From assembly GCA_938048165.1 (NCBI GenBank), contig CALIBP010000042.1, forward strand, positions 1 through 33,299: 33,299 nt of DNA. Reading direction: 5' to 3'. Position numbers and translations under genes: made by a program. How positions within the stretch are numbered: the first letter of the stretch is position 1; each line of letters opens with the position of its first letter. Positions 5,542 through 27,070 of this stretch are shown here, piece after piece. The notes beneath the pieces are model-generated. The model worked only from the letters and a program-made list of their open reading frames with translations. It had not been told where the DNA came from and did no database searches. This DNA comes from an uncultured Alphaproteobacteria bacterium. Lineage in GTDB: Bacteria > Pseudomonadota > Alphaproteobacteria > MPNO01 > UBA2964.

Positions 5542-5557
5542 TGACTATCTCCGTCAT

Positions 5558-6697: not shown

Positions 6698-7725
6698 GAT
6701 GGCTCGTTTTTCTCCAGCAAACAGGCGTCGCCATAGGAATAGAAGCGATATTTCGAATTGACGGCATGGGCGTAGGCGGCCTTCATCCGGCCAAGCCCTG
6801 AAAAGGCCGAAACCAACATGAACAGGGTTGAACAGGGCAGATGAAAATTTGTTATCAATCTATCGACAATCCGAAATTTATAGCCGGGCGTAATAAATAT
6901 ATCAGTATCGCCCTCAAAGGGGGCGAGTTCTCCAACAGCAGGCGCCGCTGATTCCAGGAGCCGTAGTGCGGTAGTGCCGCACGCCATTACTTTGCCACCG
7001 GCATGACGTGCTTTCATTATCCTCTGGACAGCTGTTTCATCGAGCTGTCCCCATTCAGAATGCATTTTGTGTTCGTCGGTATCCTCGACCTTCACCGGGA
7101 GGAACGTGCCAGCGCCTACATGCAAAGTGAGTTCAACGATGTCGATACCCACGTTTTTTATTTCTGATAGCAAGGAGTCCGTAAAATGAAGTCCAGCGGT
7201 TGGTGCGGCAACCGCACCAGCTTTGGCAGCATAAACTGTCTGATAGTCTTGGTGATCGGTTTCTCTGACGCCTTCTTTTCGACCTATGTAGGGTGGCAGG
7301 GGCATAAAGCCATTTTCAGCAAGGCCACTGAAAACCTCTTGTCCTGAAAACCCGACAACAATCTCGCCGCTATCTCTTTTCTCAACAACGGCAGCAGAAA
7401 AGTTGGAGGCGAATTCTATGATGTCGCCTTCGCGCAGGCGTTTTGCGGGGCGCGCAAAGGCGCACCAGGTTTCATCGCCGTTGCGTTTGTGTAGCGTGAT
7501 CTCGATTGACGCTTCCCCCCGGCGTCCGCGCAAACGGGCAGGAATGACCTTTGTATTATTGACGACCAAAACGTCGCGAGGATTGATTAGCTTTGGTAAA
7601 TCTCGAACCGAAAGATCGACAAGATCTTCGCCGATATGCAGCAGGCGCGCTGAATCCCGGGGTGTGGCGGGCTCCTGGGCGATTAGCTCTTTTGGGAGAT
7701 CGAAATCGAAGGCGTCAGTTTTCAT
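6694..7725 (-). CDS. queA: S-adenosylmethionine:tRNA ribosyltransferase-isomerase
   Basis: QueA transfers and isomerises the ribosyl part of S-adenosylmethionine onto preQ1 in tRNA, giving epoxyqueuosine. The 343-residue protein starts with the typical [20 protein letters not shown] and contains the family blocks [47 protein letters not shown] and [18 protein letters not shown]. It is the first gene of the operon; the promoter should lie in the 112 bp between it and the divergent EamA gene at 7838. Genes for the earlier steps (queC, queD, queE) are not in this window. Confidence 0.96.
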
Positions 7726-7837: not shown

Positions 7838-8755
7838 ATGGCCAATATAAAGACCCGACTATCCGCGCTATTTGGCTCGGCGCCCGATGGTGCCAAAGGG
7901 GTCGGGTTCATGCTTGGCTCTGCGGCATCCATATCCGGCGCGAACGGGGCTGTCCAGCATCTGTCACACAGCAACCTGCATGTCTTTGAAATCGCGTTTT
8001 TTCGGCAGTTGCTTGGCCTGATATTTATGTCCGCGCTTTTTCTCCGCGGCGGCCTCCGCCCTTTAATCACTCGGAAGTTCGGTCTGCATGTCCTGCGATC
8101 AGTCCTGAACGTTCTGGCGATGCTGGCGTTTTTCTATGGATTGAGTCTGGAGCCGCTGGCCAAAGTGGTTTCGCTCGGATTGACGGCACCACTCTTTGCG
8201 ACGGTTGGGGCCGTCATATTTTTGCGGGAACGTATGACCCCGCATCGATGGATTGCGCTTGCGATTGGTATCGCCGGGGCTCTGATAATTTTACGGCCAG
8301 GTATACAGGTAGTGTCTCTTGGCGCCTTAATGGTTCTGATATCCAATAGTTTGTGGGCGGTGGCCTTGGTCGTAATCAAGGTACTGACACGAACAGAGTC
8401 ATCAGTGACCGTGGCGCTCTATTCAAGTCTTTTGCAAACGCCTATCGCCTTTATGTTTGCGGTATTCTTCTGGCAATGGCCAACGGCAGAACAATTATTG
8501 TGGCTGGCCGGAATTGCGATTTTTGGAACAATTTCACAGCTCGCATTGACGGAGGCCTTCCGAAAGGCTGATGCGACCCTGGTGCTACCGGCTGATTTCA
8601 CTAAGGTTATTTGGGCGAGCTTGATTGGTTATTTCTTCTTTAGTCAGGTGCCAGAGATCTGGGTTGGCGTCGGCGCAGTCGTTATTTTCTCGGCGGTTTT
8701 CTATAATTCCTACTCGGATGCCCGGTTTTCACGTGCGGGCAGTTCAACGCCGTAG
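7838..8755 (+). CDS. EamA/DMT family transporter (solitary copy)
   Basis: This 305-residue protein has about ten hydrophobic segments in two EamA repeats. The first repeat ends at GIAGALIILRPG; the second ends with the VGVGAVVIFSAVFY helix. It belongs to the drug/metabolite transporter superfamily, whose members carry amino acids, sugars, purines or drugs across the inner membrane; the substrate cannot be told. It diverges from queA, so the two may share a control region. The last 46 bp overlap the 3' end of the convergent metallopeptidase gene. It is more diverged from the six-gene array than those are from each other: its first-repeat motif reads EPLAKVVSLGLTAPLF instead of MPIAD.FALQF. Confidence 0.88.
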   Translation: MANIKTRLSALFGSAPDGAKGVGFMLGSAASISGANGAVQHLSHSNLHVFEIAFFRQLLGLIFMSALFLRGGLRPLITRKFGLHVLRSVLNVLAMLAFFYGLSLEPLAKVVSLGLTAPLFATVGAVIFLRERMTPHRWIALAIGIAGALIILRPGIQVVSLGALMVLISNSLWAVALVVIKVLTRTESSVTVALYSSLLQTPIAFMFAVFFWQWPTAEQLLWLAGIAIFGTISQLALTEAFRKADATLVLPADFTKVIWASLIGYFFFSQVPEIWVGVGAVVIFSAVFYNSYSDARFSRAGSSTP

Positions 8756-13535: not shown

Positions 13536-14810
13536 ATGGCAACGGCAGCCAAACAGTACCAAGAGTTAGGCGGAATTCTGCAAAGTGATGACGATGCGGC
13601 GCGTAAAGCCCTTGCCGCTGATCCCACCACGCCGCCTGAGGTCCTCTATTTTTTCGCTGAGAAAGGCGAGGTGGAAATCCGGCGGATTGTTGCCGAAAAC
13701 CCGTCAACGCCAAACCAGGCCGATGTGATGTTGTCGCGTGACGACGATGTTTCGGTTCGCTGTGCATTGGCGCGCAAAATTGTTGGTGACGGGTTGGATG
13801 ACGATACCAAGCGCAATCTGTGGCGCATGGGCTTTACAATCCTTGAGACATTGCTGCGGGATCAGGTCGTGAGTGTGCGGCGAATCTTGTCGGAGGCCTT
13901 TAGGTCTTCGCCCCATGCCCCTCGGGAGATTGTTGTCGGGTTGGCGCGTGACACTGATCAGGAGGTCGCGGCCCCAGTTCTCTCGAAATCACCTGTTCTC
14001 ACCGAAGCGGACCTTGCGGAATTGATAGAAGTCGGTGCGCCGAATTGGGCAAAATGCGCTATCGCGGATCGTGAGCATGTGTCATCGCATTTGTGCGATA
14101 TATTGATTAGCGACGACTGTCCGGTGGCGATGGCACGGCTCGCTAAAAACAAGAAAATTTCCTTGTCCGAACCGGTGTTGGAAAAGATTGTTCATAAGGC
14201 GGAAACAGTACCGGAAATTCAACCCGCTTTGGTGGAGCGAGGTGATCTTTCTGATAATTTGCTTGTTCGATTGGTTCGGTTTGTTGCCGCCCCACTTCTG
14301 TCCAAACTTTGTGACTGCCGGGAAATAGACAGCAAAGTTGCTGTCCGTATGAACCGGGCGATCGAAATGAGAAGGGATCAACCCGCCGCACGTGTCGTCG
14401 CGAAAACACCAAAGGGTGACCACAAATCTAGCGCAAAAACGAAATCGGTCGGCACGGCTGAGAATGGTGAGGCGCCGCGCTATCGGGCCAAACGCTTGTT
14501 TGATGAAAACAAACTGACGAATGAGTCGCTCGCTGCGGCTTTGGACAATAAAGACTATGAGTTCGTCAAAGCAGCACTCGCATTGCGCGCCAAAATTCCG
14601 ATGCCGACAGTCGAACGCATGGTCCGCGTTAAAAGCGTTAAAACGATTGTCGCTCTCGCCTGGAAAGCAGGTTTAAGTGCTCGGTTTGCGATAGATTTGC
14701 AGCGTGACCTCGCTTTCATAGCGCCAAATAAAATTATGAATGCGCGCGACGGTATTGATTTTCCAATGCGCGTCGACGACATGGAATCCCAGCTTTCCAT
14801 TTTCGAATAA
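13536..14810 (+). CDS. DUF2336 domain protein with HEAT-like repeats
   Basis: The 424-residue soluble protein consists mostly of short helical repeats (for example DDDVSVRCALARKI, DQVVSVRRILSEAF, DTDQEVAAPVLSKSP, RFVAAPLLSKL), matching DUF2336, a domain I associate with alphaproteobacteria. Such repeats usually mediate protein binding. A low-complexity, Lys/Ala-rich linker (about residues 285-310) separates a C-terminal helical part. No signal peptide or membrane helix is visible. Function is unknown. Ribosome binding site GAGGTG is within a hairpin (13511-13531). Confidence 0.8.
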   Translation: MATAAKQYQELGGILQSDDDAARKALAADPTTPPEVLYFFAEKGEVEIRRIVAENPSTPNQADVMLSRDDDVSVRCALARKIVGDGLDDDTKRNLWRMGFTILETLLRDQVVSVRRILSEAFRSSPHAPREIVVGLARDTDQEVAAPVLSKSPVLTEADLAELIEVGAPNWAKCAIADREHVSSHLCDILISDDCPVAMARLAKNKKISLSEPVLEKIVHKAETVPEIQPALVERGDLSDNLLVRLVRFVAAPLLSKLCDCREIDSKVAVRMNRAIEMRRDQPAARVVAKTPKGDHKSSAKTKSVGTAENGEAPRYRAKRLFDENKLTNESLAAALDNKDYEFVKAALALRAKIPMPTVERMVRVKSVKTIVALAWKAGLSARFAIDLQRDLAFIAPNKIMNARDGIDFPMRVDDMESQLSIFE

Positions 14811-14839
14811 ACAGCTGACCGTGCGTCCGTCAGTTGTTT
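14809..14839 (+). terminator. Probable terminator hairpin after the DUF2336 gene
   Basis: AAACAGCTGAC (14809-14819) pairs with GTCAGTTGTTT (14829-14839) over 11 positions with one G-U, around a 9-nt loop. The first bases overlap the TAA stop. The right arm ends in TTT, then C, so the T tract is short. It separates the DUF2336 gene from the EamA array that starts at 14917. Confidence 0.5.
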
Positions 14840-14872
14840 CCGATATTCTTCACCTAATAAATAAACACAATT

Positions 14873-14893
14873 CGTCTCGCTAGCAGCGAAACG
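14873..14893 (+). promoter_or_regulatory. Hairpin in the leader of the EamA array
   Basis: CGTCTCGCT (14873-14881) pairs with AGCGAAACG (14885-14893) apart from one mismatch, around a 3-nt AGC loop. It lies 24 nt before the TTG start of the first array gene and just upstream of the AAGGA ribosome binding site at 14906-14910. It may affect expression of the array or be part of an operator; no function can be shown. Confidence 0.3.
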
Positions 14894-14916
14894 TCTTCGC
14901 CAACTAAGGAACAAAG

Positions 14917-15810
14917 TTGAAACCAAACCGTCCTATCGCCGGGATTCTTTGGATGAGTCTGGCAATGTTGCTCAGCGCTGCAGCCGGTGCCTGTGTACGC
15001 CAGCTCGCGGGTGAAGTGCCGACTTTAGAGCTGGTCCTTTTCCGAAATGTTGTTGGTTTGCTTCTACTAGTGCCCTGGCTTTTTCGTGAGGGGTTTGGCG
15101 TGATGCGAACCAGTCGCCTACCTCTATATTGTCTACGGGTATTTTTCGCCTATACCGCGATGGTCACGCTGTTTTACGCCTGGGGAGAAATGCCGATTGC
15201 GGATGTGTTTGCCCTGCAATTCACCATCCCCTTGTTCACGATCATGCTCGCCGTATTTATCCTTAAACAACAAACAGATCGTCAGGCTTGGGCGGCATGC
15301 CTCGTTGGCTTTGCCGGAGCGTTAATAGTTATGCGACCTGGCGTTATCGAGCTTACCTTGGCCGCAGTTGCTGCTATTGCTTCCGCAATGATGTCAGCAG
15401 GCTCCAACACCACGATAAAGCTACTAACCAGAACGGAAAGTGTTGGAACCATTACGGTTTATTCCAATTTGCTTATGCTGCCGCTGGCAATGATCCCAAC
15501 CGTCTTTATCTGGGTAACGCCAACTCTGGAGCAAATCCCGTGGATATTTGGGGCGGCGTTTTTCAGTGCTGTCGGGGGCATCTGTTTTACGATGGCGGTT
15601 GGTGCAGCGGATGCCCGTGTGGTCCAACCCTTCCAGTTCACCCGAATGATATTTGCCGCATTGATTGGTTACGTCATGTTTCTTGAATTGCCCGATATTT
15701 GGACCTGGGTTGGTGCAGCAGTGATTTTTGGTGCGTCTTACTACATAGTGTGGCGCGAAACCAAAATACGAAACGCCAACCAAGCACCGACTGGATCCCC
15801 AACATCATGA
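14917..15810 (+). CDS. EamA/DMT transporter, array copy 1
   Basis: First gene of the six-member array, 297 residues. Repeat one covers about residues 8-143 and ends GFAGALIVMRPG. Repeat two covers about 145-282 and ends LPDIWTWVGAAVIFG. The half-way signature MPIADVFALQFTIPLFT is present. About ten membrane segments and no signal peptide are seen. The start is TTG 14917 with AAGGA 6 nt before it, so translation may start at a modest rate. Its stop overlaps the next ATG (ATGA). The promoter should lie between the hairpin at 14839 and the gene. The substrate is unknown; DMT members move small amines, amino acids, nucleosides or sugars. Confidence 0.9.
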   Translation: MKPNRPIAGILWMSLAMLLSAAAGACVRQLAGEVPTLELVLFRNVVGLLLLVPWLFREGFGVMRTSRLPLYCLRVFFAYTAMVTLFYAWGEMPIADVFALQFTIPLFTIMLAVFILKQQTDRQAWAACLVGFAGALIVMRPGVIELTLAAVAAIASAMMSAGSNTTIKLLTRTESVGTITVYSNLLMLPLAMIPTVFIWVTPTLEQIPWIFGAAFFSAVGGICFTMAVGAADARVVQPFQFTRMIFAALIGYVMFLELPDIWTWVGAAVIFGASYYIVWRETKIRNANQAPTGSPTS

Positions 15811-16691
15811 AAAATGGAATTTTATCAAACGCCGTCGTCCGTGGTGTTCTGTGGATGGTGCTGGCAACAGCCTTTCAGGCTTTGGCGAGCGGCTTTGTCA
15901 GAAAACTGTCCTTCGACTTCGGCGTTGCAGAACTTCTTTTCTTCTTTAGCAGCATCAGCGCCCTGTTACTCCTGCCGTTGGCAATGCGCCTCGACAAAGG
16001 ATCATTTGCTGGCATTCGTCGTCGCTCAGGTCTCTACATCCTTCGTGGGTTGCTGTCGTTCGGCGGGATGTACGCTTCTTTCTATGCCTATTCTGTAATG
16101 GATATTGCGAACGTCCAATCACTGCTCTTTACCGTACCGCTGTTCACTATTTTGCTCGCAGGTTTATTACTCGGAGAGTATGTCGGTCTGCGGGGTTGGC
16201 TATCTTGCGTAATCGGTTTTTGTGGGGCGCTCATCATCGTGCGTCCGGGTATCATCCCGATAAATCCCGGCGCTCTTGCTGCAATTGTGTCGGCTTTCGC
16301 TTTTGCTGCAGCCAATATCACCATTCGCAAACTCGGCAGCAGCGAGAGCCCTATCATGATTACGATGGTGTCTAATTCGATCGTGGCGCTACTTTCCATT
16401 GTTCCCGCCGCGATTAACTGGGTGACACCGAGCTGGGAACAAGTGCCGGGGATTTTGTTCATGGGGGTGCTGTTTATGTTGGCAATGGTTTGCCTCACAT
16501 TCTCCATACGTGAAGCCGATGCCCGCATAGTGCAATCAGTCAATTTTTTACGGCTGCCGTGGTCGGTGGCTGTTGGATGGGTCATGTTTGCAGAGTTGCC
16601 AGATATCTGGACCTGGGTTGGTGCTGTCGTCATTTTTGCGGGAGCCTATGATGTGCTGCGTCGCGAAAGCCGAGGCGTAAAAAAGGCATGA
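15807..16691 (+). CDS. EamA/DMT transporter, array copy 2
   Basis: 294 residues. The start is ATG 15807, within the ATGA shared with copy 1; upstream codons are open back to 15699 but overlap copy 1 out of frame. Repeat one contains FYAYSVMDIANVQSLLFTVP, where the other copies have MPIAD.FALQF; the conserved acidic residue is replaced by Asn, the most divergent form in the array. Repeat two has EADARIVQSVNFLRLPW and LPDIWTWVGAVVIF. No clear ribosome binding site is seen, so translation should depend on coupling to copy 1. Its stop forms ATGA with copy 3. Confidence 0.9.
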   Translation: MKNGILSNAVVRGVLWMVLATAFQALASGFVRKLSFDFGVAELLFFFSSISALLLLPLAMRLDKGSFAGIRRRSGLYILRGLLSFGGMYASFYAYSVMDIANVQSLLFTVPLFTILLAGLLLGEYVGLRGWLSCVIGFCGALIIVRPGIIPINPGALAAIVSAFAFAAANITIRKLGSSESPIMITMVSNSIVALLSIVPAAINWVTPSWEQVPGILFMGVLFMLAMVCLTFSIREADARIVQSVNFLRLPWSVAVGWVMFAELPDIWTWVGAVVIFAGAYDVLRRESRGVKKA

Positions 16692-17575
16692 CCGCGGCCA
16701 ACGCCAGCACGACCAACCGCAGCGCTGCCATGCGTGGCATCGCGTGGATGGTACTGTCTGGTATCGGCTATTCAATAAATGCCGGACTGGTTAAGCAGTT
16801 GTCGTCCGATCTAAACACGATGGAGATTGTGTTTTGGCGTTCGGTCGTTGCGACGGTCATATTGCTGCCCTTTCTGTGTAAGCATATTGGTTCAACAGGG
16901 AAAGAGTCCCTGAAGAACTGGCATCTGTTTTTGTTGCGCGGCCTGTTCACCTACCTGGCGATGGGCGCGACATATTATGCCCTGGCGAACATGCCAATCG
17001 CTGATGTCTATGCCCTGCAATTCACCCTGCCGCTTTTTATGATTCTCGCGGCGATACTGTTCCTCGGGGAAAAGGCGCGCGTTGGTAGCTGGGTAGCCTG
17101 CATCGTCGGATTTATCGGCACCCTGATTATTTTGAGACCGGGGTTTGAGACTATTACCATCGCGGCGCTGGCAGCACTCACTTCCGCAGTGCTCTATAGC
17201 TGTACAAATATCTTTATTAAGAAACTGTCGCGCACTGAAAGTACGACGACAATCACTGTCTTTGGCAATCTGGTGATGGTCGTTGTGGCGGCAATTCCGC
17301 TGTTATTTGCCTGGCAATTGCCCCCGTTACACACTCTCGGATGGATAATAGCCCTTGGCGTCTTTACGACGGCTGGGCAGTGGGCGCTGGCACGGGCGAT
17401 AGCGACGGCAGATGCGCGTATTGTCTGGCCGTTCGACTTCCTCCGCATGCCATTTACGGTGGCCGTTGGGTATGTGATGTTCGGCCAGCTGCCCGGCATT
17501 TGGACCTGGGTTGGTGCCGTGGTCATTTTTGGGGCTGCGTATTATGTCATTCGCGAGGAGGCCACGACCAAGTGA
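16688..17575 (+). CDS. EamA/DMT transporter, array copy 3
   Basis: 295 residues with two EamA repeats. A polar N-terminal extension (about 14 residues, Ala/Asn/Ser/Thr) precedes the first helix. The first-repeat signature is MPIADVYALQFTLPLFM, close to copy 1. Repeat two shows TADARIVWPFDFLRMPF, with Trp in place of the usual Gln. The end is LPGIWTWVGAVVIFG. The start lies in the ATGA shared with copy 2 and has a weak AAGG 4-6 nt upstream. The stop shares GTGA with copy 4. Confidence 0.9.
   Translation: MTAANASTTNRSAAMRGIAWMVLSGIGYSINAGLVKQLSSDLNTMEIVFWRSVVATVILLPFLCKHIGSTGKESLKNWHLFLLRGLFTYLAMGATYYALANMPIADVYALQFTLPLFMILAAILFLGEKARVGSWVACIVGFIGTLIILRPGFETITIAALAALTSAVLYSCTNIFIKKLSRTESTTTITVFGNLVMVVVAAIPLLFAWQLPPLHTLGWIIALGVFTTAGQWALARAIATADARIVWPFDFLRMPFTVAVGYVMFGQLPGIWTWVGAVVIFGAAYYVIREEATTK
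17555..17561 (+). promoter_or_regulatory. Strong ribosome binding site of array copy 4
   Basis: GAGGAGG lies 10 nt before the GTG start at 17572, inside the coding sequence of copy 3. It is the only strong site within the array before the GST, and it supports the GTG start over the longer open frame. Confidence 0.6.
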
Positions 17576-18435
17576 CCGATGCTGCCTATTCCAATGCTAT
17601 CAAGGGCGCTCTGTGGATGCTTGGCGCGTCGGTTTGCTATGTATCCTCAGCGACGCTGACTCGCTATCTGGCGGGTAGTTATCCGACCTTTGAACTAACA
17701 TTTTTGCGCTGTGTTGTCGGGGTGATCGTTCTCACACCGCTGATCCTGCGGGGCGATCTCAAGGAGTTAAAAACCACCGCTTTTCCACTACATTGCGTGC
17801 GGGCCGTATTAACTTATATCTCGATTCTTTTATGGTTCTACGCCACTGAAAAAATACCCGTTGGTGACTTCTTCGCTATCCAGTTTGTTTCGCCACTCTT
17901 CACGATTGCCGTTGCGGCAATTTTGTTGCGCGAGAAAGTCAGCGCCAAAAGCTGGTTGGCAGCATTAATCGGTTTTCTGGGTGTGACGGTCATTATCCGA
18001 CCAGGCTATATACCTGTTTCGCTTGGTGTCATTGCAGCGCTCGGCACGGCAGCGGCATACGCGTTTGTAAATACCTGTATTAAAGTGCTGTCGCGTCAGG
18101 ACTCGCCGATGGTGATGACATTTTACGTCAACGTTCTTGTTCTGGTGCTTGCCGTGATACCAGCATATCTGACCTGGAAAACACCGGTTGCGACAGACTG
18201 GCCGATCCTGATCGCCGTGGCGTTGTTCGCAACGCTGGCGCAGTTTTGTGTGGCCTCCAGTATCTCGCTGGCCGATGCGCGGGTCGTACAGCCAATGAAC
18301 TTCCTGCGCATGCCGATCGCTGCCGCAATGGGCTTTATGGTGTTTGGCGAGTTCCCTGATCTCTGGACCTGGTTTGGGGCGGTGATCATTTTTGGCGCTG
18401 CTTGGTACGCTATTCAGCAGAGTAAAAAGAAATGA
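17572..18435 (+). CDS. EamA/DMT transporter, array copy 4
   Basis: 287 residues from GTG 17572. The frame is open back to 17341, but the extra N-terminal stretch overlaps copy 3 in another frame and shows no membrane pattern. GTG in the GTGA overlap, preceded by a strong GAGGAGG (17555-17561), decides the start. The first-repeat signature IPVGDFFAIQFVSPLFT and the end FPDLWTWFGAVIIFG place it with copies 5 and 6. Its last bases form ATGA with copy 5. About ten membrane segments are visible. Confidence 0.9.
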   Translation: MTDAAYSNAIKGALWMLGASVCYVSSATLTRYLAGSYPTFELTFLRCVVGVIVLTPLILRGDLKELKTTAFPLHCVRAVLTYISILLWFYATEKIPVGDFFAIQFVSPLFTIAVAAILLREKVSAKSWLAALIGFLGVTVIIRPGYIPVSLGVIAALGTAAAYAFVNTCIKVLSRQDSPMVMTFYVNVLVLVLAVIPAYLTWKTPVATDWPILIAVALFATLAQFCVASSISLADARVVQPMNFLRMPIAAAMGFMVFGEFPDLWTWFGAVIIFGAAWYAIQQSKKK

Positions 18436-19313
18436 AGCAGTTACCCGGTGCGGTTATCGGGTCACTCTGGATGCTGTCGAGCTGTGTTTTCTACGCTTGT
18501 GCGGCCTCATTGGTGCGTGAGGTGGGGGACACCTATTCCGCATATCAAATGACAATGATCCGCTCCTTCGTCGCGGTTGTTGCCTTGGCACCGGTCTATC
18601 TTAGTGAAGGTGGCAGGCTATTATTTATTCCCAAACGCTTCTTCATGCATTTGCTGACCGGGGTGTTTACCTATCTGGGGATTATTTTCTGGTTCATTGC
18701 CACGGCATCGATGCCGATTGCTGATTTCTTTGCGCTGCAGTTTGTGACACCGCTTCTGACAATGGCCTTTGCGATTTTCTTTTTACGGGAGAACGCAGAT
18801 GTCCGGAGCTGGATCGCAGCCTTGATTGGTTTCGCTGGCGTGCTTGTAATCCTGCGCCCCGGAATTATCGAGATTTCCTTTGCGGCCATGGCAGCGCTGA
18901 TTAGTGCGGTCTTTTATGCGAGCGACAATACGGTTATCAAATCGCTCTCTAAAGGCGTGTCGGCGACAATGATTGTCTATTATGCCCATCTTCTGATGAT
19001 TCCGATTTCAATTCCGATGGCGCTAGTGACCTGGAAGCAACCAACGCTTTATGACTTTGGCATCATCGTCGCGATCTGCCTGTGCCTGACAATGGCTTAT
19101 CTGTCTGTTACGAAAGCCATTTCGCTGACGGTGGCACGGGTCATCCAGCCGGTGAACTTTATGCGGATGCCGATTGCCGCCGTGTTTGGCTGGGTATTGT
19201 TCAGCGAGTTCCCTGACCTTTGGACCTGGGTTGGCGCTGTAATCATCTTTTGTGCAACGACCTATGCGGTTCGGCGTGGTGCTAAAACACCGGAAAAGAC
19301 GGCAGCCACATGA
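18432..19313 (+). CDS. EamA/DMT transporter, array copy 5
   Basis: 293 residues. Signature MPIADFFALQFVTPLLT in repeat one; repeat two carries ARVIQPVNFMRMPIAAVFGW and FPDLWTWVGAVIIFC. The two repeats are also joined by FAGVLVILRPGIIEISFAAMAAL, nearly the same as copy 6 (some segments shortened here). It is most like copy 6, which suggests the two arose by the latest duplication in the array. The ATG start is within ATGA; no strong ribosome binding site is visible. The stop forms ATGA with copy 6. Confidence 0.9.
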   Translation: MKQLPGAVIGSLWMLSSCVFYACAASLVREVGDTYSAYQMTMIRSFVAVVALAPVYLSEGGRLLFIPKRFFMHLLTGVFTYLGIIFWFIATASMPIADFFALQFVTPLLTMAFAIFFLRENADVRSWIAALIGFAGVLVILRPGIIEISFAAMAALISAVFYASDNTVIKSLSKGVSATMIVYYAHLLMIPISIPMALVTWKQPTLYDFGIIVAICLCLTMAYLSVTKAISLTVARVIQPVNFMRMPIAAVFGWVLFSEFPDLWTWVGAVIIFCATTYAVRRGAKTPEKTAAT

Positions 19314-20179
19314 ATGCTCTACCAGCGTCAGTCCAGGGTGCTTTCTATATGCTGGTTAGCGCCTTCTGCTATGTCGGTTCGGCGACGCTGATCCGTTATA
19401 TCGGTGAAGGCTATTCACCATTTCTTCTGACATTTTTCCGCTCGGTTATCGCGGTGATCATTCTGGCGCCGGTGATCTTTCAATTGCGAGGCTCTTCCCT
19501 CTGGCCGAAACGGCCCTTCGCGGTGCTGATGACGGGAGTCTTCTCCTATATTGGTATTTTTCTGTGGTTCTATTCAGCGGGCCGGATGCCGGTCGCCGAG
19601 TTCTTTGCCCTGCAATTTGCAACACCGCTCTTTACCATCGCCTTCGCGATTATCTTTCTCCGTGAACGCTCTGATATCGCCAGCTGGCTGGCGACCTTTA
19701 TCGGATTTGCGGGGGTGTTGATCGTTTTACGGCCGGGCATAATTGAAGTTTCGTTTGCGGCGGTCGCGGCAATCGCCTGCGCAGCGAGCTATGCGAGCGT
19801 CAATACAGTGATCAAATCGCTCTCAAAGACGGTACCGACGACGGTCATCGTATTCTATGCCAACTTTTTGTTAGTCCCGATTTCTTTGCCGATGGCGATT
19901 GTCGATTGGAAGACGCCTCTCTGGATCGATATGCCAGCAATTGTCGGTGCTTCCGTCCTCTCAACGATTGGCTACGTAACGGTCTCCAAGGGGATTGCGC
20001 TGGCGCCGGCTCGCGTTGTCCAGCCGGTAAACTTTCTGCGCATGCCAATCGGGGCGGCGTTTGGCTGGGTGTTGTTTAGTGAACTTCCGGATATCTGGAC
20101 ATGGGTCGGGGCGATTGTCATCTTTTGCGCGACGAGCTACGCGGTACAGCGCGGGGCACGTAACAAGGGAGACAGTTGA
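19310..20179 (+). CDS. EamA/DMT transporter, array copy 6
   Basis: 289 residues, last transporter of the array. Signature MPVAEFFALQFATPLFT, with Glu in place of the Asp of copies 1, 3 and 5. Repeat two has ARVVQPVNFLRMPIGAAFGW and LPDIWTWVGAIVIFC. It shares VNTVIKSLSK-like and WVLFSE segments with copy 5. The start is in ATGA with copy 5. Its TGA overlaps the ATG of the downstream GST (TGATG). The substrate is unknown. Confidence 0.9.
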   Translation: MNALPASVQGAFYMLVSAFCYVGSATLIRYIGEGYSPFLLTFFRSVIAVIILAPVIFQLRGSSLWPKRPFAVLMTGVFSYIGIFLWFYSAGRMPVAEFFALQFATPLFTIAFAIIFLRERSDIASWLATFIGFAGVLIVLRPGIIEVSFAAVAAIACAASYASVNTVIKSLSKTVPTTVIVFYANFLLVPISLPMAIVDWKTPLWIDMPAIVGASVLSTIGYVTVSKGIALAPARVVQPVNFLRMPIGAAFGWVLFSELPDIWTWVGAIVIFCATSYAVQRGARNKGDS

Positions 20180-20880
20180 TGATCACACTGCATGCCTGGC
20201 CAACACCCAACGCGCACAAAGTCTCGATCATGCTGGAAGAATGCGGGCTTGAATATCAGGTCGTCGCCGTAGACATCACCGCAGGCGATCAGTTTGCACC
20301 TGAATTCCTGGAACTCAGCCCGAATAATCGGATGCCAGCCTTGGTTGATGAAGAAGGACCGGAGGGTAAACCAGTCTCAATTTTTGAGTCGGGTGCCATC
20401 CTGTTTTATCTCGCTGACAAGACAGGCAAATTCATGCCCTCGTCAAGCAACAAGCGTTACGAGGTGATGCAATGGCTGATGTTTCAGATGGGCAATCTCG
20501 GCCCGATCTGCGGACAAGCGCATCATTTTCGTGACGCCGCGCCGGAACGGGTGCCATACGCGATCAACCGTTTTACCGATGAAGCAGGGCGGCTCTACGG
20601 CGTGATGGACAGACGGCTGGCGGAAGCGACCTATCTGGCGGGCGATGATTACTCAATTGCTGATATGGCCTGTTGGCCCTGGGTTCGCGTACATCGCTAT
20701 CATGGCCAGCCTTGGGACGATTTCCCCAATGTGAAACGCTGGTTTGATGATGTCGCTGCACGCCCGGCGGTGCAGGAGGGCATGAAGCTCCTAACTGACA
20801 AACGGGCCAAGACTCGCGACGTTCTGGATGACAAATCCCGCGACATCCTGTTTGGTAAAACCCAGATGACGAAGCGTTAG
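20179..20880 (+). CDS. Glutathione S-transferase (YfcG/YghU-like)
   Basis: The 233-residue protein has an N-terminal thioredoxin-like domain with ITLHAWPTPNAHKVSIMLEE, where Thr and Asn take the place of a catalytic Cys or Ser, as in the Nu-class disulfide oxidoreductases YfcG and YghU. RMPALVD and the glutathione gamma-glutamyl contact FESGAIL follow. The helical C-terminal half includes YLAGDDYSIADMACWPWV. The start is ATG 20179, overlapping the stop of array copy 6, with AAGGGAG (20165-20171) 7 nt upstream; a TTG at 20176 is less likely. It is the last gene of the array operon, so it may detoxify or reduce something linked to the transported compounds (inference). Confidence 0.92.
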   Translation: MITLHAWPTPNAHKVSIMLEECGLEYQVVAVDITAGDQFAPEFLELSPNNRMPALVDEEGPEGKPVSIFESGAILFYLADKTGKFMPSSSNKRYEVMQWLMFQMGNLGPICGQAHHFRDAAPERVPYAINRFTDEAGRLYGVMDRRLAEATYLAGDDYSIADMACWPWVRVHRYHGQPWDDFPNVKRWFDDVAARPAVQEGMKLLTDKRAKTRDVLDDKSRDILFGKTQMTKR

Positions 20881-21779
20881 CCGGATTTCTTGTCCGCGTC
20901 GTTGGCTTCCTTGCGGATTGAAAAATAGGTGCTGGCGAAGATAACCAGGGCACCAACTGCGACCCAGGGGGAGAAGGTCTCATCCCACAGCAGATAGGCG
21001 ATGAACGCGATAAAAGGCAGGCGCAGAAAATCGATTGGGAAGCATACCGAGGTGTCGATCAGGACCAGCGCCTTGCTGAGGCAGAAATGTGTGGTTAGGC
21101 CGGAGAGTCCCAGCAACAGGAGCCAGGGCAGATGATGCCATTCGGGCATCACCCACAGATAAACCGCCGGCCCTAGGAAAAGTAGACTCTGAATCACATT
21201 CATAGTGAAAACCATGGTGCTGGCGCTTTCGGTGTGCGACAGAACTTTGACCATGACGTTCTGGGCGGAAAATAACACTGCGCCAAAAATCACCATCATT
21301 GTCGGAATACCGACGGGGACGATGCCAGGGCGGACGATAATCATGACCCCGAGAAAGCTCACCGCCATGCCGATCCAGCGGTAGCGGTTAACCTTTTCGC
21401 CTATCGTCATCGCGGCGATCGCGGCGGTAAGGGCCGGGATGGTGTATTCAATCGAGGTGACCACCGCGAGAGGTACAGAAATCACGCCGAAAAACACGCA
21501 ATATTGTCCACCGGCATGGGTCGCGTTGCGCAGGAACTGAAAACCGGGCCGTTTGGTGATGAGGGACCGTAAACCCTCCTGAGGGATCATGATGGCGGCT
21601 ATGGCAATCAACCCGATCAACGCCCGGAAGAATAATAGTTGGGGCACCGTCATGTCTGGCTTGAGCGCCCGCACCGCGATGACAATCCCGGCCAGCCCGG
21701 CGACGGCGATCACCATCCACCCGATGCCGCGAAGGGTCTCGGCACGGGTCGCATTCGCAGTGCTGTTTTGGTCGTTCAC
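20877..21779 (-). CDS. EamA/DMT family transporter, convergent to the array
   Basis: 300 residues from GTG 21779, with two EamA repeats and about ten membrane segments. Its signature is VPLAVVTSIEYTIPALT, quite different from the array copies. Repeat two ends SPWVAVGALVIFASTYF, lacking the LPDIWTW of the array. The stop codon overlaps that of the GST on the other strand by 3 bp, leaving no room for a terminator. It diverges from the UbiD gene across 145 bp. The start is uncertain, since no ribosome binding site is clear. Confidence 0.85.
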   Translation of the reverse strand: MNDQNSTANATRAETLRGIGWMVIAVAGLAGIVIAVRALKPDMTVPQLLFFRALIGLIAIAAIMIPQEGLRSLITKRPGFQFLRNATHAGGQYCVFFGVISVPLAVVTSIEYTIPALTAAIAAMTIGEKVNRYRWIGMAVSFLGVMIIVRPGIVPVGIPTMMVIFGAVLFSAQNVMVKVLSHTESASTMVFTMNVIQSLLFLGPAVYLWVMPEWHHLPWLLLLGLSGLTTHFCLSKALVLIDTSVCFPIDFLRLPFIAFIAYLLWDETFSPWVAVGALVIFASTYFSIRKEANDADKKSG

Positions 21780-21924: not shown

Positions 21925-23418
21925 ATGGACGGATCGCAAGCCAGTAATCTCAAACACCACGTCACCTTTAATGACCTTCGGGAATATATCGAAGAGGTCG
22001 ATAAGCTCGGCGAGCTGCGCCGTGTTCAAGGAGCGACCTGGGAAGAAGATATCGGCATGGCGGCGGAATTACTGCTGCATAGCGAAACGGCGCCCTGCGC
22101 TTTGTTTGATGAAATTCCAGGCTATCCCAAAGGGCACCGGGTCTTTACCAACTTCTTTGGTGGTCGCCGCCAGAATATTACGTTGGGCTTTCCGCCGGAC
22201 CTTACCAAGTTTGAGCTAAGTGTCGCCTTTAACAAGGCCTATCAGGAGGTCGTTCAAAGACCACTACCTTACAAAACTGTTGAAACCGGCCCGGTGATGG
22301 AAAATATCATGGAAGGTGACGACGTAGACGTGCTTTCTCTACCGACACCGCTTTGGCATGAAGGGGATGGCGGGCGTTATATCGGAACCGGGTCTTTTAA
22401 TGTCACCCGTGACCCTGAAGAGAACTGGATCAATGTCGGTACCTACCGCGTGATGGTGCATGATGAAAAAACCGTCGGGTTTTATATTTCCCCCGGGAAA
22501 CATGGTCGGCTGCATCGTCAAAAATACATGGCCAAGAACCTGCCCATGCCGGTCTGCGTTGTCGTCGGTGTTGATCCGCTTAGCTTTCTGATGTCGTCAT
22601 CGGAAATTCCGTATGGCGTTTGCGAATTTGACATCATGGGCGCCTATCGTGGCCGTCCGGTTGAATGCGTCATCGGCAAACATACTGGGCTGCCGTTTCC
22701 CGCAAATGCCGAGATTGTCCTCGAAGGCTTTTGCTATCCGGACAAACTCCACTCTGAAGGACCATTCGGCGAATGGACAGGGTATTACGGGAATCCTGAA
22801 CATAATGGACCGACGCTGGATATTAAGGCTATCTATCATCGTAATGATCCGATCATGCTCGGTTGTCCGCCGCAACGTCCGCCAGAGGAACAGTCGCGTT
22901 ATCGGGCTGTGGTGCGCTCGGCGCTTCTCAAGGAGCAGATCGAAGCGGTTGGCGTTCCTGATGTTCAGGTTGCCTGGTGCCATGAATGTGGCGGCGGGCG
23001 CATGTTTACTGCCGTGTCTATTAAACAGCGCTATCCGGGACATGCGACACAGGCGGGCCAGATTGCCTCGCAGTGTCGTCTCGGGGCGTATGCCGGGAAA
23101 TTCGTTGTCGTCGTTGATGACGATATCGATGCGTCGAATCTGGAAGACGTCATGTGGGCGCTTTGTTTCCGGGCAGATCCGGCAACGGATATCGATATCA
23201 TCAACCGAGGCTGGTCCACGGGACTCGATCCGTCGATCCATCCTGATCGCAAGGAAATTGGCGATACGACCAACAGTCGTGCGATTATCAATGCCTGCAA
23301 GCCGTTCCACTGGATGGATCGGTATCCCAAGGTCAATACACCAGACAAAGAAACCTATGCTCGCGCTAAGGAGAAATGGGGTTGGCTGCTCAATACCAAT
23401 CAGCCGCCAACAAAATAG
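21925..23418 (+). CDS. UbiD family prenyl-FMN-dependent decarboxylase
   Basis: The 497-residue protein is a full-length UbiD-type (de)carboxylase. It carries the segment NWINVGTYRVMVHD with Asn170 and Arg175, GKHG with His193, CEFD with Glu234, and SEGPFGEWTGYY with the catalytic Glu278 and Glu283. These match the metal, prFMN and Glu-Arg-Glu active-site residues known from fungal Fdc1. The ribosome site AGGAG (21911-21915) is well placed before ATG 21925. The prFMN-making UbiX gene is not in the window. UbiD relatives act on aromatic, heteroaromatic or unsaturated acids; the substrate here is unknown. EamA genes on the opposite strand flank it on both sides. Confidence 0.93.
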   Translation: MDGSQASNLKHHVTFNDLREYIEEVDKLGELRRVQGATWEEDIGMAAELLLHSETAPCALFDEIPGYPKGHRVFTNFFGGRRQNITLGFPPDLTKFELSVAFNKAYQEVVQRPLPYKTVETGPVMENIMEGDDVDVLSLPTPLWHEGDGGRYIGTGSFNVTRDPEENWINVGTYRVMVHDEKTVGFYISPGKHGRLHRQKYMAKNLPMPVCVVVGVDPLSFLMSSSEIPYGVCEFDIMGAYRGRPVECVIGKHTGLPFPANAEIVLEGFCYPDKLHSEGPFGEWTGYYGNPEHNGPTLDIKAIYHRNDPIMLGCPPQRPPEEQSRYRAVVRSALLKEQIEAVGVPDVQVAWCHECGGGRMFTAVSIKQRYPGHATQAGQIASQCRLGAYAGKFVVVVDDDIDASNLEDVMWALCFRADPATDIDIINRGWSTGLDPSIHPDRKEIGDTTNSRAIINACKPFHWMDRYPKVNTPDKETYARAKEKWGWLLNTNQPPTK

Positions 23419-23420
23419 GT

Positions 23421-24362
23421 TTAGTGGTGTCCTGACGCTTTGGATTCGTGCCTTGTCATATAATAGGTTGAGCCGGCAATAACACTGGCTCCAATCCAGA
23501 CCCATATGTCCGTCGTTTGGTCGAAGACCAGATAGGCAACAAAGGCGGTAATTGGCAGACGCAAATATTCAATGGGTTCGACAATGGTAGCCTCGGCGTG
23601 GACGAAAGCCCGCACCAGACAATAGGGCGCTATGGTTCCAGAGACCGCCAATAGAAGAAGACCCGGGAAATCGAGTAATGTTGGCGTGACCCAGGTGAAC
23701 CAGTTCAAGGGTATTCCGGTATCCGGAATATTGGTTGCGATAAGCCACCCTACGAGCATTGAGACAGAAGCGAATATTGTCAGGGTAAACTGGTAATAAA
23801 AGGTCGTCGTCGTCGGGTGATCAGTCTTACCCAATGAGCGCGTGTAGATCGCTACACCGGCGTAGGAAAGGGCGGATCCGAGGACCAGGAATGCCGCGGG
23901 GCCGATGGGGACGGCCCCCGGTCTCAAGATCACCAATACACCGCAGAAACCAATTAATGTGCAGGTCAGCCGGGTGATGCCCGGTCTTTCCTTCAGGAAT
24001 ATAACCGCGAGCACGACGACCATCAGCGGTACGGTGAAATGAAGGGCCACCGCTTTGGCGATGGGTAAAAAGGCCAATCCAGCAAACCACAACCACATCC
24101 CGGTGAAATTTGCGAGATTGCGTTGTAGATGGAATCCCAGCCGGTTGGTTTGCCAAAACCGAACCCCTCGCCAGCCTACGATACTTAGAAGGATCAGGAG
24201 GCCAAAAAAATTTCTGAAAAAAACAAGTTCTATTGCTGGAATGTGGCTCAATAATCGGACGGCGATGGGAACAAATGAATGTGCTGCCGCCGCGCCGACG
24301 CCCCATGCGGCGCCAATGAGAACCTGGTTTCCGACGGTAGAGCCGGGGTATTTTGAGGTCAT
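23421..24362 (-). CDS. EamA/DMT family transporter
   Basis: 313 residues with two EamA repeats. The first-repeat signature is LPIAKAVALHFTVPLMV and the end is TDIWVWIGASVIAGSTYY. The loop in the middle of repeat two (around residues 205-225) is longer than in other copies. Its ATG overlaps the stop of the upstream unknown gene in an ATGA. Its stop lies 2 bp from the UbiD stop (convergent). It is therefore the last gene of a unit with the unknown protein and the polytopic membrane protein to its right. Confidence 0.88.
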   Translation of the reverse strand: MTSKYPGSTVGNQVLIGAAWGVGAAAAHSFVPIAVRLLSHIPAIELVFFRNFFGLLILLSIVGWRGVRFWQTNRLGFHLQRNLANFTGMWLWFAGLAFLPIAKAVALHFTVPLMVVVLAVIFLKERPGITRLTCTLIGFCGVLVILRPGAVPIGPAAFLVLGSALSYAGVAIYTRSLGKTDHPTTTTFYYQFTLTIFASVSMLVGWLIATNIPDTGIPLNWFTWVTPTLLDFPGLLLLAVSGTIAPYCLVRAFVHAEATIVEPIEYLRLPITAFVAYLVFDQTTDIWVWIGASVIAGSTYYMTRHESKASGHH

Positions 24363-25645
24363 CGATACATGCCGATGGCATCTATGCGGCGGTCAATTTT
24401 CGCAATCTCGTCTCTATATTTTTTGCTTTTCGTGTCGCGATAGCGGCTTTTAAACTGAGCGGTCGTCATCCCTTGAGGCAGGTCGGTAAAGGTCGGGAAA
24501 AAACTGCGTTCTGAGCTTGCGGCGGACAGCACTCTCTGAAATTCGAGTGCTTTGCTTCGGTTTTCGGTGGCCTTTTTCGCAAAGCGGACACCCATTCTAT
24601 CCGCGCCAATATCGGTGAAGCTGAAACCACTCTTCTTATTGGCGGCGTCTTTCACTTCTTTGAGGACACCAATGATATTCGCTGTATCTTCGCCACCGGT
24701 TAGCGTCAATCCGGCTGAAATTGCAAAATGCTGAACAAAATCGTGACGGTCATTTAGCCTGACATGAGAGATTTTCCCCCGTTTTGATTTCTGCTGAGCA
24801 GTTCGCACTTCGCCAATAAACCGCTCAAAGCGGGAATCGCCGAAATACAAAACCAGTGCCAAAATGGCTGCCCTGTTTTCATCGATAGGATCACCGGAGC
24901 TTGATCGCTGCCCTGCTAATTTGAATAGAGGGCGTATAAAATCTGTCAGGGAAACCCGGCTCAGCGAGGAATATTGCGCGGCAAGTTTTTCGATCAGGTC
25001 ATAGTAGGGTTTTACGGTCTTTGGACTGCTGATTTGTATTCGTTTTCTTGCTGCGGTTTTAATGTCCTTTAACAAATTCGGTGGCGGCTGAAAGCGAACA
25101 TAGATTGTTGGACCCAGGACCTTAACGGAGCGAACGCTCTTCAAAATCGGATCGGCCTTACCTTTGCCCACGATTTCATCCAGTGCATAGCGGAGAGCAG
25201 GATCGATGAGTTGCTGAGGAATTTCCACCTTGCCGACATAAAGGCGGTAAAATCTCAGGCCTCGTGAAGAAGACGCAATAACAGTACGGATGTTGAGGTA
25301 ACGCCCAAGGGGGTTGTCTGGTAACTCCACAGACATTCCTATGAGGATGCCAAACCGAGCCACTTTGACAGTGGTTACGACATTTGGAATCGACGCCATT
25401 GCGCCTTTCAGAACGGTGTTTAACTCACGTGTTGTCGCCCGAATTTCGGTGATCTTGTCTGGAGACATTAAGCGAGGATCAAAACGCTTTGCCAATTGCT
25501 GGGCGTTTTTTAAATCCTGCAGATTGATGGCGCCGGGTCTTTTGAGGGCGGGTACATCCTGGACAGCATTCATCGCTATCGCTATTGGCAATCCGATAAT
25601 AATTGCGAGAAAAAAAAGACCGCTAAGACGAAAAAGACAGCCCAT
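24359..25645 (-). CDS. Uncharacterised membrane-anchored protein
   Basis: The 428-residue protein has one N-terminal membrane segment or uncleaved signal (about residues 5-25) and a large polar part. I recognise no enzyme motif. Relatives, as I recall, share the blocks HDFVQHFAISAGLTLTGGED and GFSFTDIGADRMGVRFAKKA and a Lys/Arg-rich end. These suggest a conserved C-terminal domain of unknown role, perhaps in the periplasm. The stop forms ATGA with the following EamA gene, and its start lies 84 bp after the upstream membrane protein. No strong ribosome binding site precedes ATG 25645. Confidence 0.75.
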   Translation of the reverse strand: MGCLFRLSGLFFLAIIIGLPIAIAMNAVQDVPALKRPGAINLQDLKNAQQLAKRFDPRLMSPDKITEIRATTRELNTVLKGAMASIPNVVTTVKVARFGILIGMSVELPDNPLGRYLNIRTVIASSSRGLRFYRLYVGKVEIPQQLIDPALRYALDEIVGKGKADPILKSVRSVKVLGPTIYVRFQPPPNLLKDIKTAARKRIQISSPKTVKPYYDLIEKLAAQYSSLSRVSLTDFIRPLFKLAGQRSSSGDPIDENRAAILALVLYFGDSRFERFIGEVRTAQQKSKRGKISHVRLNDRHDFVQHFAISAGLTLTGGEDTANIIGVLKEVKDAANKKSGFSFTDIGADRMGVRFAKKATENRSKALEFQRVLSAASSERSFFPTFTDLPQGMTTAQFKSRYRDTKSKKYRDEIAKIDRRIDAIGMYR

Positions 25646-25729: not shown

Positions 25730-27070
25730 TTATGCCACGAGAACCGGATTAATGGCGGACAGAATTAGGGCACAAAGGGCACCGCCAACAAAGACATAAA
25801 TTATATTACTCCAGCTAATAAGGCGGGTCATTGGCAGGTCGAACATCGTAGCACCGGTTACGACCGAGAGGCTGCTCAAGGAAATAGCGGTGTTCAATCC
25901 CCAGCCTGTTAGAAGCGCCTGCATAAAGACGAGGTCTGACAGGCCGGTCGGAATATTCGTAAAGAGAACAAGTAATATCGTGCCGGAGACGATGGAGTGA
26001 ATAGCCATCAGCCCCATTAGGTTCATAAACGTGATAACAAAAAATATAATAAAGGTGGGCGAGAGCATTAAGCTCTGCAACCAATCAAGAAGCCCCATAT
26101 CAGGGAGGGCTGCTTCGAAGACGGCACCGAGGATTGTGGCGAAGGTCAGGATCGCCGTTTCAGGACCTATCCGCGTTACTCTTTGACCAGTTGCACGCAG
26201 GGCTGTTGGGATGGACCCGCCAGGTGCGAGGGCAACGGCCAGCAGACAGGGCAGGGGCATTGCCAATACCAGTGCCTGCAACGTTGAAAACCCGGTGCCG
26301 AGGGCCGTTCCTACGACGAGCAAAGCGGCAATGGCAATTGGTGGCGCGACGGGTGCCAGAGTCATAAGTGATTGCCAAAGGGCCCTGAGCCCTCCTTTGC
26401 GATCAAAAAAGATGATCGATAACACGATGCAGAAGGCAGATAGCGCCAGCCCCAGAAACATGATCTGCCACAAGGGAACTTTAGGTAAATATTGGCTGGC
26501 GACTGCCATCCCTACGACAAATGGCGACCAAAGAGGAACAAGCGCCATGCCGCGCATCGCGGCAACAAAGACTTCCCGACGCTCACTTGCGGGTGCATCG
26601 CGACCAAGAATCGGTGCCATAATGGCAAACACGCCAACTTGCAGAATAGAACCAACAAGAAAACCGCCGACGACCAAGCCGCTGTCCCGTCGCTCTCGAT
26701 CGAGGGCCGTAAAAAGGCCTCGGGCCACGCCGATTTCTGGTCGCTGATCTGCCGTAGCCCGCAACAAGACGATTGTCGCCAAAAATGCGGGGAAGATGGC
26801 AGCGCGTGTTAATCCGCCCTCGATAGCGGCCCATTGATCATAGAAATAGGCCAGCGAGATCGTTGAAATCGCAAGAAAAGCGCACAGAAGTTTTACGTTC
26901 CACGTGGCCTGTGGCAGAGCAATGATTGCCAGACAGGCAAGGAGGCCAACCATAACCGTCGAAACTTGCGGTGTCGGAAACAGAACCTGAACCAGCCCGA
27001 GGATCCAAAGAAGACCAATCAACAGAACGATAAGTCGAGCTATTGGTGAATAGGGGGAGGGGCTGTTCAT
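25730..27070 (-). CDS. Polytopic inner-membrane protein, putative permease
   Basis: The 446-residue protein is almost wholly hydrophobic, with about 12 likely membrane segments. One hydrophilic cytoplasmic-like loop (about residues 110-130, GLFTALDRERRDSG) is rich in charge, and another follows ILGRDAPASERRE. The length, hydrophobic pattern and absence of EamA or MFS motifs suggest an ion-transporter-superfamily permease. I cannot name the family. The operon with an unknown membrane-anchored protein and an EamA gene suggests joint transport or membrane work. Confidence 0.7.
   Translation of the reverse strand: MNSPSPYSPIARLIVLLIGLLWILGLVQVLFPTPQVSTVMVGLLACLAIIALPQATWNVKLLCAFLAISTISLAYFYDQWAAIEGGLTRAAIFPAFLATIVLLRATADQRPEIGVARGLFTALDRERRDSGLVVGGFLVGSILQVGVFAIMAPILGRDAPASERREVFVAAMRGMALVPLWSPFVVGMAVASQYLPKVPLWQIMFLGLALSAFCIVLSIIFFDRKGGLRALWQSLMTLAPVAPPIAIAALLVVGTALGTGFSTLQALVLAMPLPCLLAVALAPGGSIPTALRATGQRVTRIGPETAILTFATILGAVFEAALPDMGLLDWLQSLMLSPTFIIFFVITFMNLMGLMAIHSIVSGTILLVLFTNIPTGLSDLVFMQALLTGWGLNTAISLSSLSVVTGATMFDLPMTRLISWSNIIYVFVGGALCALILSAINPVLVA

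What the first reader, a model, noticed from the sequence alone, without database searches (positions are those of the whole stretch)
14917..20179. Six different EamA transporter genes in tandem, each joined by a 4-nt stop/start overlap
Seen in sequence: copies 1-6 are linked by ATGA, ATGA, GTGA, ATGA and ATGA. All have two complete EamA repeats and share ADAR..QP..F.RMP and LPDIWTWVGA blocks, yet differ in their first-repeat signature. Pairs of EamA genes are common; six co-translated, diverged, intact copies is in my experience very unusual. Inference: selected as a set, perhaps hetero-oligomers or a battery of related substrates.
Basis: partly seen in the sequence, partly recalled or inferred. 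Interest (0 to 1): 0.78.

Follow-up and report, generated by a model that had tools for sequence, protein, structure and literature searches.

The report
Six-gene bank of duplicated membrane transporters
Uncultured marine bacteria carry six related but different small-molecule transporter genes in a row, largely kept across their genus beside a few metabolic genes; it is an unusually long expansion of a common transporter family rather than a new kind of system.

Summary
Six intact EamA (DMT-superfamily) genes lie head to tail at 14917-20179, each joined by a 4-nt stop/start overlap. A GST gene (20179-20880) is the seventh gene. The array is syntenic in all 8 congeners drawn: with our own, six intact copies in 6 of 9 genomes, five in 2, five plus a frame-broken copy in 1. 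Three other genera of the family have 5, 3 or 1. Each copy is an old orthologous lineage under purifying selection.
Relatives show what the locus was: in other families of the order, EamA genes sit beside a tartrate-dehydrogenase-type gene and this GST, often with a UbiD gene and a second, facing EamA bank. The six genes are a local expansion of the first bank; our genus lost the dehydrogenase here. EamA lies within 1.5 kb of this enzyme in 11 of 14 loci of the order and 1 of 29 outside.
Long EamA runs are rare but not unique: a Lake Baikal MAG has eleven, of separate origin.
Best reading: a co-translated set of diverged carriers for related metabolites. Hetero-oligomers are unsupported. Substrates, direction and co-transcription are untested.

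The parts
14917..15810 (+). EamA transporter copy E1 (TTG start)
   Evidence: ORF; two EamA repeats, 87 bits; TTG start conserved in 5 congeners
15807..16691 (+). EamA transporter copy E2; ATGA overlap with E1
   Evidence: (94.7 bits)
16688..17575 (+). EamA transporter copy E3; ATGA overlap with E2
   Evidence: 116.7 bits
17572..18435 (+). EamA transporter copy E4 (GTG start); GTGA overlap with E3
   Evidence: (121 bits); AF2 model pLDDT 86.6, DMT fold
18432..19313 (+). EamA transporter copy E5; ATGA overlap with E4
   Evidence: 103.6 bits
19310..20179 (+). EamA transporter copy E6; ATGA overlap with E5
   Evidence: 110.6 bits
20179..20880 (+). glutathione S-transferase, seventh gene of the unit; TGATG overlap with E6
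   Evidence: GST_N/GST_C; nearest NCBIfam model PRK13972, 229 bits, below its 332 cut-off; follows the array in 8 of 8 congeners
20877..21779 (-). EamA gene facing the array (probable remnant of the second, convergent EamA bank)
   Evidence: groups with genes of the convergent banks of other families
21925..23418 (+). UbiD-family decarboxylase, recurrent neighbour
   Evidence: PF01977 217.7 bits; TIGR00148 266.6 bits, over its cut-off; distant UbiD genes also at the locus in other families
23421..24362 (-). EamA gene beyond UbiD (second bank, other subclade)
   Evidence: tree

Best explanation
A bank of six EamA/DMT carriers made by repeated local tandem duplication. The founder, in the ancestor of the order, sat upstream of a tartrate-dehydrogenase-type enzyme and a glutathione S-transferase. 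Shown: tandem paralogues of one clade, each kept for long; overlaps that point to one message with coupled translation; conserved neighbours. Inferred: one transcript makes all six at similar levels; each is a complete 10-helix carrier working alone; they share the gating scaffold and differ in the cavity, so together they move a range of related small metabolites, most likely organic acids or their by-products handled by the UbiD, dehydrogenase and GST enzymes of the locus. My confidence by step: local tandem origin 0.9; one transcription unit 0.8; diverged substrates rather than mere dosage 0.55; organic-acid-type substrates 0.25; export rather than import 0.55.
For: Tandem origin: E1-E6 fall in one 25-row clade (SH-aLRT 99) with the EamA genes upstream of the dehydrogenase and/or GST in other families, apart from the convergent banks; each copy is its own orthologue clade.
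Unit: 4-nt overlaps at all five junctions and 1 nt to GST in the window and 3 congeners, small variations in the rest.
Selection: dN/dS 0.026-0.062 for the six copies against the nearest congener, L017.
Complete carriers: two repeats each; AF2 model of E4, pLDDT 86.6, whose helices I read as ten membrane helices, the ninth broken; Foldseek hits to YddG 5i20, TPT 5y78 (TM 0.81), SLC35B1 and LicB.
Cavity: 17 sites are nearly fixed within copies (mean 93% or more) but have 4 or more different consensus residues between them. 7 lie in helices 1 and 8 (3.4 expected from helix length), which contact substrate in a solved relative (passages of PMC6508934); none lie in helices 5 or 10, which do not line the cavity of a modelled relative (passage of PMC7076037).
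Context: the dehydrogenase scores 545-560 bits on TIGR02089, cut-off 470.4, in L025, L026 and L032; EamA lies within 1.5 kb of this enzyme in 11 of 14 loci of the order and 1 of 29 outside, a relative of this GST in 10 of 14 and 0 of 29.
Against: No substrate, expression or transport data. The dehydrogenase is absent from this locus in our genus and was not found at all (E <= 1e-120) in 7 of its 9 genomes, four of them at least 96% complete, so the array does not need it there. In genus g4 of the family (L027, L028) both dehydrogenase and GST are absent from the locus. The UbiD of the own family shares only 25-29% with those of the other families, so they may be different enzymes. Copy number varies between genera. 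The cavity argument is a small post-hoc count without coordinates. No copy reaches the cut-off of a function-level NCBIfam model. Eight plus-strand terminator-like sites lie in the region, though the total is not above shuffles.
Confidence: 0.5

Rival explanations
1. Dosage and redundancy: the copies do the same job, and several are kept because more carrier is needed or because tandem duplicates are gained and lost easily.
For: Copy number changes: 6, 5, 3 or 1 in related genera, E1 frame-broken in one congener. One operon would give one level of expression.
Against: Copies are 29-60% identical by repeat and stay apart as orthologue clades; copies kept for dosage would be expected to stay more alike (general expectation, not tested). 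Gene conversion was not tested for.
Confidence: 0.25
2. Hetero-oligomeric transporter whose subunits are the six proteins.
For: Co-translation with short overlaps favours fixed stoichiometry; paired small DMT-superfamily proteins that work as heterodimers are known (recalled); some relatives of this fold may form oligomers in membranes (passage of PMC6508934).
Against: Each protein has both repeats and the one modelled has a complete carrier fold. The set shrinks to 5, 3 or 1. A solved relative is a monomer in detergent (same passage).
Confidence: 0.06
3. Unselected expansion: a passive by-product of tandem duplication, or an assembly artefact.
For: EamA genes are numerous in this genome (80 repeat matches) and duplicates may be tolerated.
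Against: Low dN/dS for every copy; five or six copies in all 9 genomes of the genus examined, one of them a single 4.15-Mb contig.
Confidence: 0.04
4. Multi-toxicant efflux bank: the carriers pump out toxic by-products or glutathione-linked products, the GST being the detoxifying partner; the metabolic enzymes are incidental.
For: GST is the end gene of the unit in all 8 congeners and follows the dehydrogenase or faces EamA genes in other families; the fold family includes exporters (YddG hit).
Against: The GST is nearest to disulfide-reductase-type GSTs, below their cut-offs, not to conjugating enzymes. No regulator was among the neighbours scanned with Pfam.
Confidence: 0.15

Closest known systems
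EamA / DMT-superfamily 10-TM exporters such as YddG (PDB 5i20) and E. coli EamA
   Same: Two EamA repeats each; predicted DMT fold of E4 matching 5i20.
   Different: 12-20% identity to the 38 best solved chains; below every function-level NCBIfam cut-off; six coupled copies instead of a single gene.
Pairs and short runs of EamA genes in other Alphaproteobacteria
   Same: Adjacent same-strand EamA genes: of 67 other loci 9 have pairs, 3 have triples, 2 have runs of four.
   Different: Shorter; the runs of three or more that were put in the tree lie outside the E1-E6 clade.
Eleven-gene EamA run in the Baikal MAG contig SHVQ01000026 (L096)
   Same: Long same-strand run of intact, diverged EamA genes (40-57% identity); 4 of 10 junctions allow a 4-nt overlap.
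   Different: A separate clade (support 97, FastTree) next to another EamA subfamily; different neighbours (histidine kinases, RpiB-type isomerase); fewer tight overlaps.
Tartrate dehydrogenase (TIGR02089) loci
   Same: The enzyme beside the EamA gene in other families of the order is over the curated cut-off.
   Different: Outside the order the enzyme has no EamA gene within 1.5 kb in 28 of 29 loci; in the window's genus it is gone from this locus.

Membership tests
EamA transporter family (PF00892), DMT superfamily | Two EamA repeats over the gathering score | tested here: met
   All six copies, 87-121 bits, two stretches each
EamA transporter family (PF00892), DMT superfamily | 10-helix inverted-repeat fold | tested here: met
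   AF2 model of E4; 38 PDB chains at E <= 0.001, all DMT-type carriers by title, or recall. The other five copies were not modelled.
EamA transporter family (PF00892), DMT superfamily | Transport of a small metabolite | not testable with these tools
   No assay
TIGR00950 carboxylate/amino acid/amine transporter (equivalog) | Score over the curated cut-off 230.2 | tested here: not met
   47-83 bits for the six copies
YddG aromatic amino acid exporter (NF050091) | Score over 300 bits | tested here: not met
   19-31 bits in three copies, none listed in the others
Single transcription unit (operon) | Same strand, overlapping genes | tested here: met
   Overlaps of 4, 4, 4, 4, 4 and 1 nt
Single transcription unit (operon) | No internal terminator or promoter | tested here: inconclusive
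   14700-21000: 12 terminator-like sites (8 on the plus strand) against 9.0 (sd 3.3) in shuffles, 2 promoter-like against 5.1
Single transcription unit (operon) | Co-transcription | not testable with these tools
   No RNA data
GSH-dependent disulfide-bond oxidoreductase (PRK13972) | Score over 332 bits | tested here: not met
   229 bits
Tartrate dehydrogenase TIGR02089 (relatives' loci only) | Score over 470.4 bits | tested here: met
   L025, L026, L032 545-560 bits; 14 matches in 13 of 27 genomes of the draw, all over the cut-off, one (G014, locus L029) with an in-frame TGA; absent from this locus in the window's genus

The most novel reading that the evidence does not exclude
This order of uncultured marine Alphaproteobacteria and Defluviicoccus relatives has an undescribed locus type: a UbiD / tartrate-dehydrogenase-type / GST metabolic module flanked by two facing EamA carrier banks that grow and shrink by birth and death (from 2 carriers to 8), so that a bacterium diversifies its small-molecule carrier repertoire at one dedicated site. 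The eleven-gene Baikal bank would be an independent case of the same evolutionary strategy.
Probability: 0.4. Interest if true: 0.58.

Novelty: new variant of a known kind. Interest (0 to 1): 0.43.

Why it matters
[quoted passage not shown] A locus where six diverged, co-translated copies are kept beside the same few enzymes gives a bounded set in which substrates can be assigned by comparison. It also gives a clear bacterial case of a carrier repertoire growing at one site, with an independent and longer example elsewhere.

Tried and rejected
Hetero-oligomer: no support (complete fold, variable copy number). Assembly artefact: rejected (9 of 9 genomes of the genus examined). Recruitment of unrelated EamA genes: disfavoured by the trees. 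Shared motif blocks as a special mark of the array: rejected. Plasmid relatives: 226 places in 212 records; of the 20 records listed at most 3 places in one, so no array seen. PDB by sequence: no hit for E4 at E <= 0.1. Promoter and terminator scan: no signal above shuffles. Relatives of the Baikal MAG: many EamA genes of that kind, but in the 5 stretches fetched the longest run was three, so the run of eleven was not seen again.

Literature: PMC searches found no paper; one found one, not on the subject by its title and abstract start; one listed 11 and 63 listed 12 of 113, none on EamA arrays by title; 47 listed 15 of 16, used for structural background only. Passages only were seen of PMC7076037, PMC6508934, PMC5898192 and PMC8707732; no paper was read whole. 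Absence from print is claimed only for these searches.

Rows left out: the tree used 120 of the 209 EamA proteins collected; the tree used 60 rows, dropped matches under 230 aa and did not include L035; the site analysis left out L024 (close to L021) and the frame-broken E1 of L020; dN/dS compared the window with 7 of 8 congeners, and saturated pairs gave no value; of 47 tartrate-dehydrogenase matches outside the order, only the 29 given as loci were examined, five of them with shortened flanks. The class scan was even over families but held no genome of the own order outside the own family.
Full report
What is there. Six ORFs at 14917-20179 on the + strand each encode a two-repeat EamA protein of 287-297 aa. 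The junctions are ATGA, ATGA, GTGA, ATGA and ATGA, read directly from the sequence. A glutathione S-transferase gene follows with a 1-nt overlap (TGATG, 20177-20181), so the unit has seven genes. The GST gene ends against a facing EamA gene (20877-21779, -). Beyond lie a UbiD-family gene (21925-23418, +) and another EamA gene (23421-24362, -); a ninth EamA gene is at 7838-8755. The genome, 68% complete, holds 80 EamA repeat matches, roughly 40 genes.

Is it real and conserved? Yes. In the 8 other genomes of the genus that were drawn the array is syntenic, between a luciferase-like monooxygenase gene (with a DUF2336 gene found between them in 5 of 8) and the GST gene. Six intact copies are present in 6 of 9 genomes including our own; two (L018, L019) lack copy E1, with under 120 bp between the upstream gene and E2; in one (L020) E1 has a frame break. 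L021 and L024 are very alike, so the nine are not fully independent. L018 lies in a single contig of 4,149,033 bases titled 'chromosome'. Junction overlaps are the same in the window, L017, L022 and L023 and nearly so in the others; the starts of E3 in L020, L021 and L024 and of E5 in L020 were extrapolated and are not certain. dN/dS against the nearest congener (L017, dS 0.72-1.10) is 0.026-0.062 for the six copies; more distant pairs are partly saturated.

Where it came from. In other genera of the family the same place holds five copies (L025, no E5), three (L027, L028) or one (L032). In other families of the order, one or two EamA genes sit upstream of a gene for a tartrate-dehydrogenase-type enzyme and then the GST (L026, L029, L034, L035), or of the GST alone (L036). 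A second EamA bank of two to five genes faces them or, in L172 and the g5 (Defluviicoccus-type) loci, faces the dehydrogenase without an upstream EamA gene. A UbiD gene is close by in the four f3 loci and in the four g5 loci, not in L026 or L172. The enzyme in L025, L026 and L032 scores 545-560 bits on TIGR02089, whose cut-off is 470.4; the copy in L029 holds an in-frame TGA. A tree of 60 proteins puts E1-E6 and the upstream EamA genes of L026, L029, L034 and L036 in one clade of 25 (SH-aLRT 99), and the facing banks outside it. In a larger tree of 120 proteins each copy is its own orthologue clade. So the array is a local expansion of one bank; in family f3 the facing bank is the long one. 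Our genus has lost the dehydrogenase from this locus; two of its nine genomes (G000, G001) keep a GST-dehydrogenase pair elsewhere, and none was found in the other seven. In genus g4 (L027, L028) both dehydrogenase and GST are missing from the locus.

How specific is that context? Within 1.5 kb of the dehydrogenase there is an EamA gene in 11 of 14 loci of the order and in 1 of 29 loci drawn from the rest of the class; a relative of this GST is there in 10 of 14 and 0 of 29. The 29 are those of 47 outside matches that were given as loci, and five have shortened flanks.

How unusual is a run of six? A pattern for 'conserved EamA C-terminus, then the next EamA start' was run on 385 genomes of the class. 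Ten have a match, five of them in the own family; the other five have one junction each. The pattern is insensitive outside this subfamily (4 of 5 here, 2 of 10 in the Baikal run), and the draw held no other family of the own order. Among 78 loci found in 84,980 species genomes by motifs of this subfamily, the longest same-strand run per locus was 1 in 52, 2 in 9, 3 in 5, 4 in 2, 5 in 3, 6 in 6 (one of these with the frame-broken E1) and 11 in 1; all runs of five and six are the own family's array. The eleven-gene run (L096, contig SHVQ01000026, Rhodospirillales MAG Baikal-deep-G42) has copies 40-57% identical and is a separate clade (support 97, FastTree) next to a different EamA subfamily. 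It is a separate expansion and the longest seen here.

What it probably does. The AF2 model of copy E4 (pLDDT 86.6) has helices that I read as ten membrane helices, the ninth broken, and its 38 best structural matches are DMT-type carriers, among them SLC35B1, YddG, Vrg4, the triose-phosphate translocator, the CMP-sialic acid transporter and LicB. These include exporters, exchangers and an importer, so direction is open. Each copy should be a working carrier by itself. Seventeen sites are nearly fixed within a copy but have four or more different consensus residues between copies; seven lie in helices 1 and 8, ten in helices 1, 3 and 8, and none in helices 5 or 10. Helices 1 and 8 contact substrate in the CMP-sialic acid transporter (passages of PMC6508934), and helices 5 and 10 do not line the cavity in a PfCRT model (passage of PMC7076037). 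This is a weak, post-hoc sign that the cavities differ. With the enzymes nearby, the best guess is a co-produced set of carriers for related organic acids or their by-products. It remains a guess: no function-level model is met, and seven of nine genomes of the genus lack a detected dehydrogenase.

Verdict. The new element is the wider locus: two facing EamA banks around a UbiD / dehydrogenase / GST group, changing in copy number across an order.

Noticed in passing
L096:9004-19253: Eleven consecutive EamA genes in a Lake Baikal Rhodospirillales MAG contig (SHVQ01000026), 40-57% identical, a clade of their own, next to an RpiB-type isomerase gene and PAS histidine kinases.
   Followed up: partly
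L026:2249-9952, L029:1855-9262, L034:2959-12939: Two facing EamA banks around a tartrate-dehydrogenase-type gene and a GST gene in other families of the order.
   Followed up: yes
window 21925-23418: The UbiD-family protein is the best conserved full-length protein of the locus in the 7 congeners where it was seen (90-99% identity, against 83-95% for E4).
   Followed up: no
window 3944-7725: Queuosine gene cluster (QueA, TGT, QueF, QueG) on the minus strand, with an EamA gene and a YgjP-like gene beside it; the YgjP-EamA pair is also in L021, L022, L024, L027 and L032.
   Followed up: no
L169:3922-5733 and L170:5065-6882: Own genome and one congener keep a GST-dehydrogenase pair at another place, in the reverse gene order to that of the relatives' array locus.
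   Followed up: partly
L020:11990-13000: Copy E1 is frame-broken in this long-contig assembly while its neighbours are intact; sequencing error or recent loss cannot be told apart.
   Followed up: no
window 24359-25645 and 25730-27070: Two ORFs of 428 and 446 aa without a Pfam match at E <= 0.001, with counterparts in several congeners.
   Followed up: no
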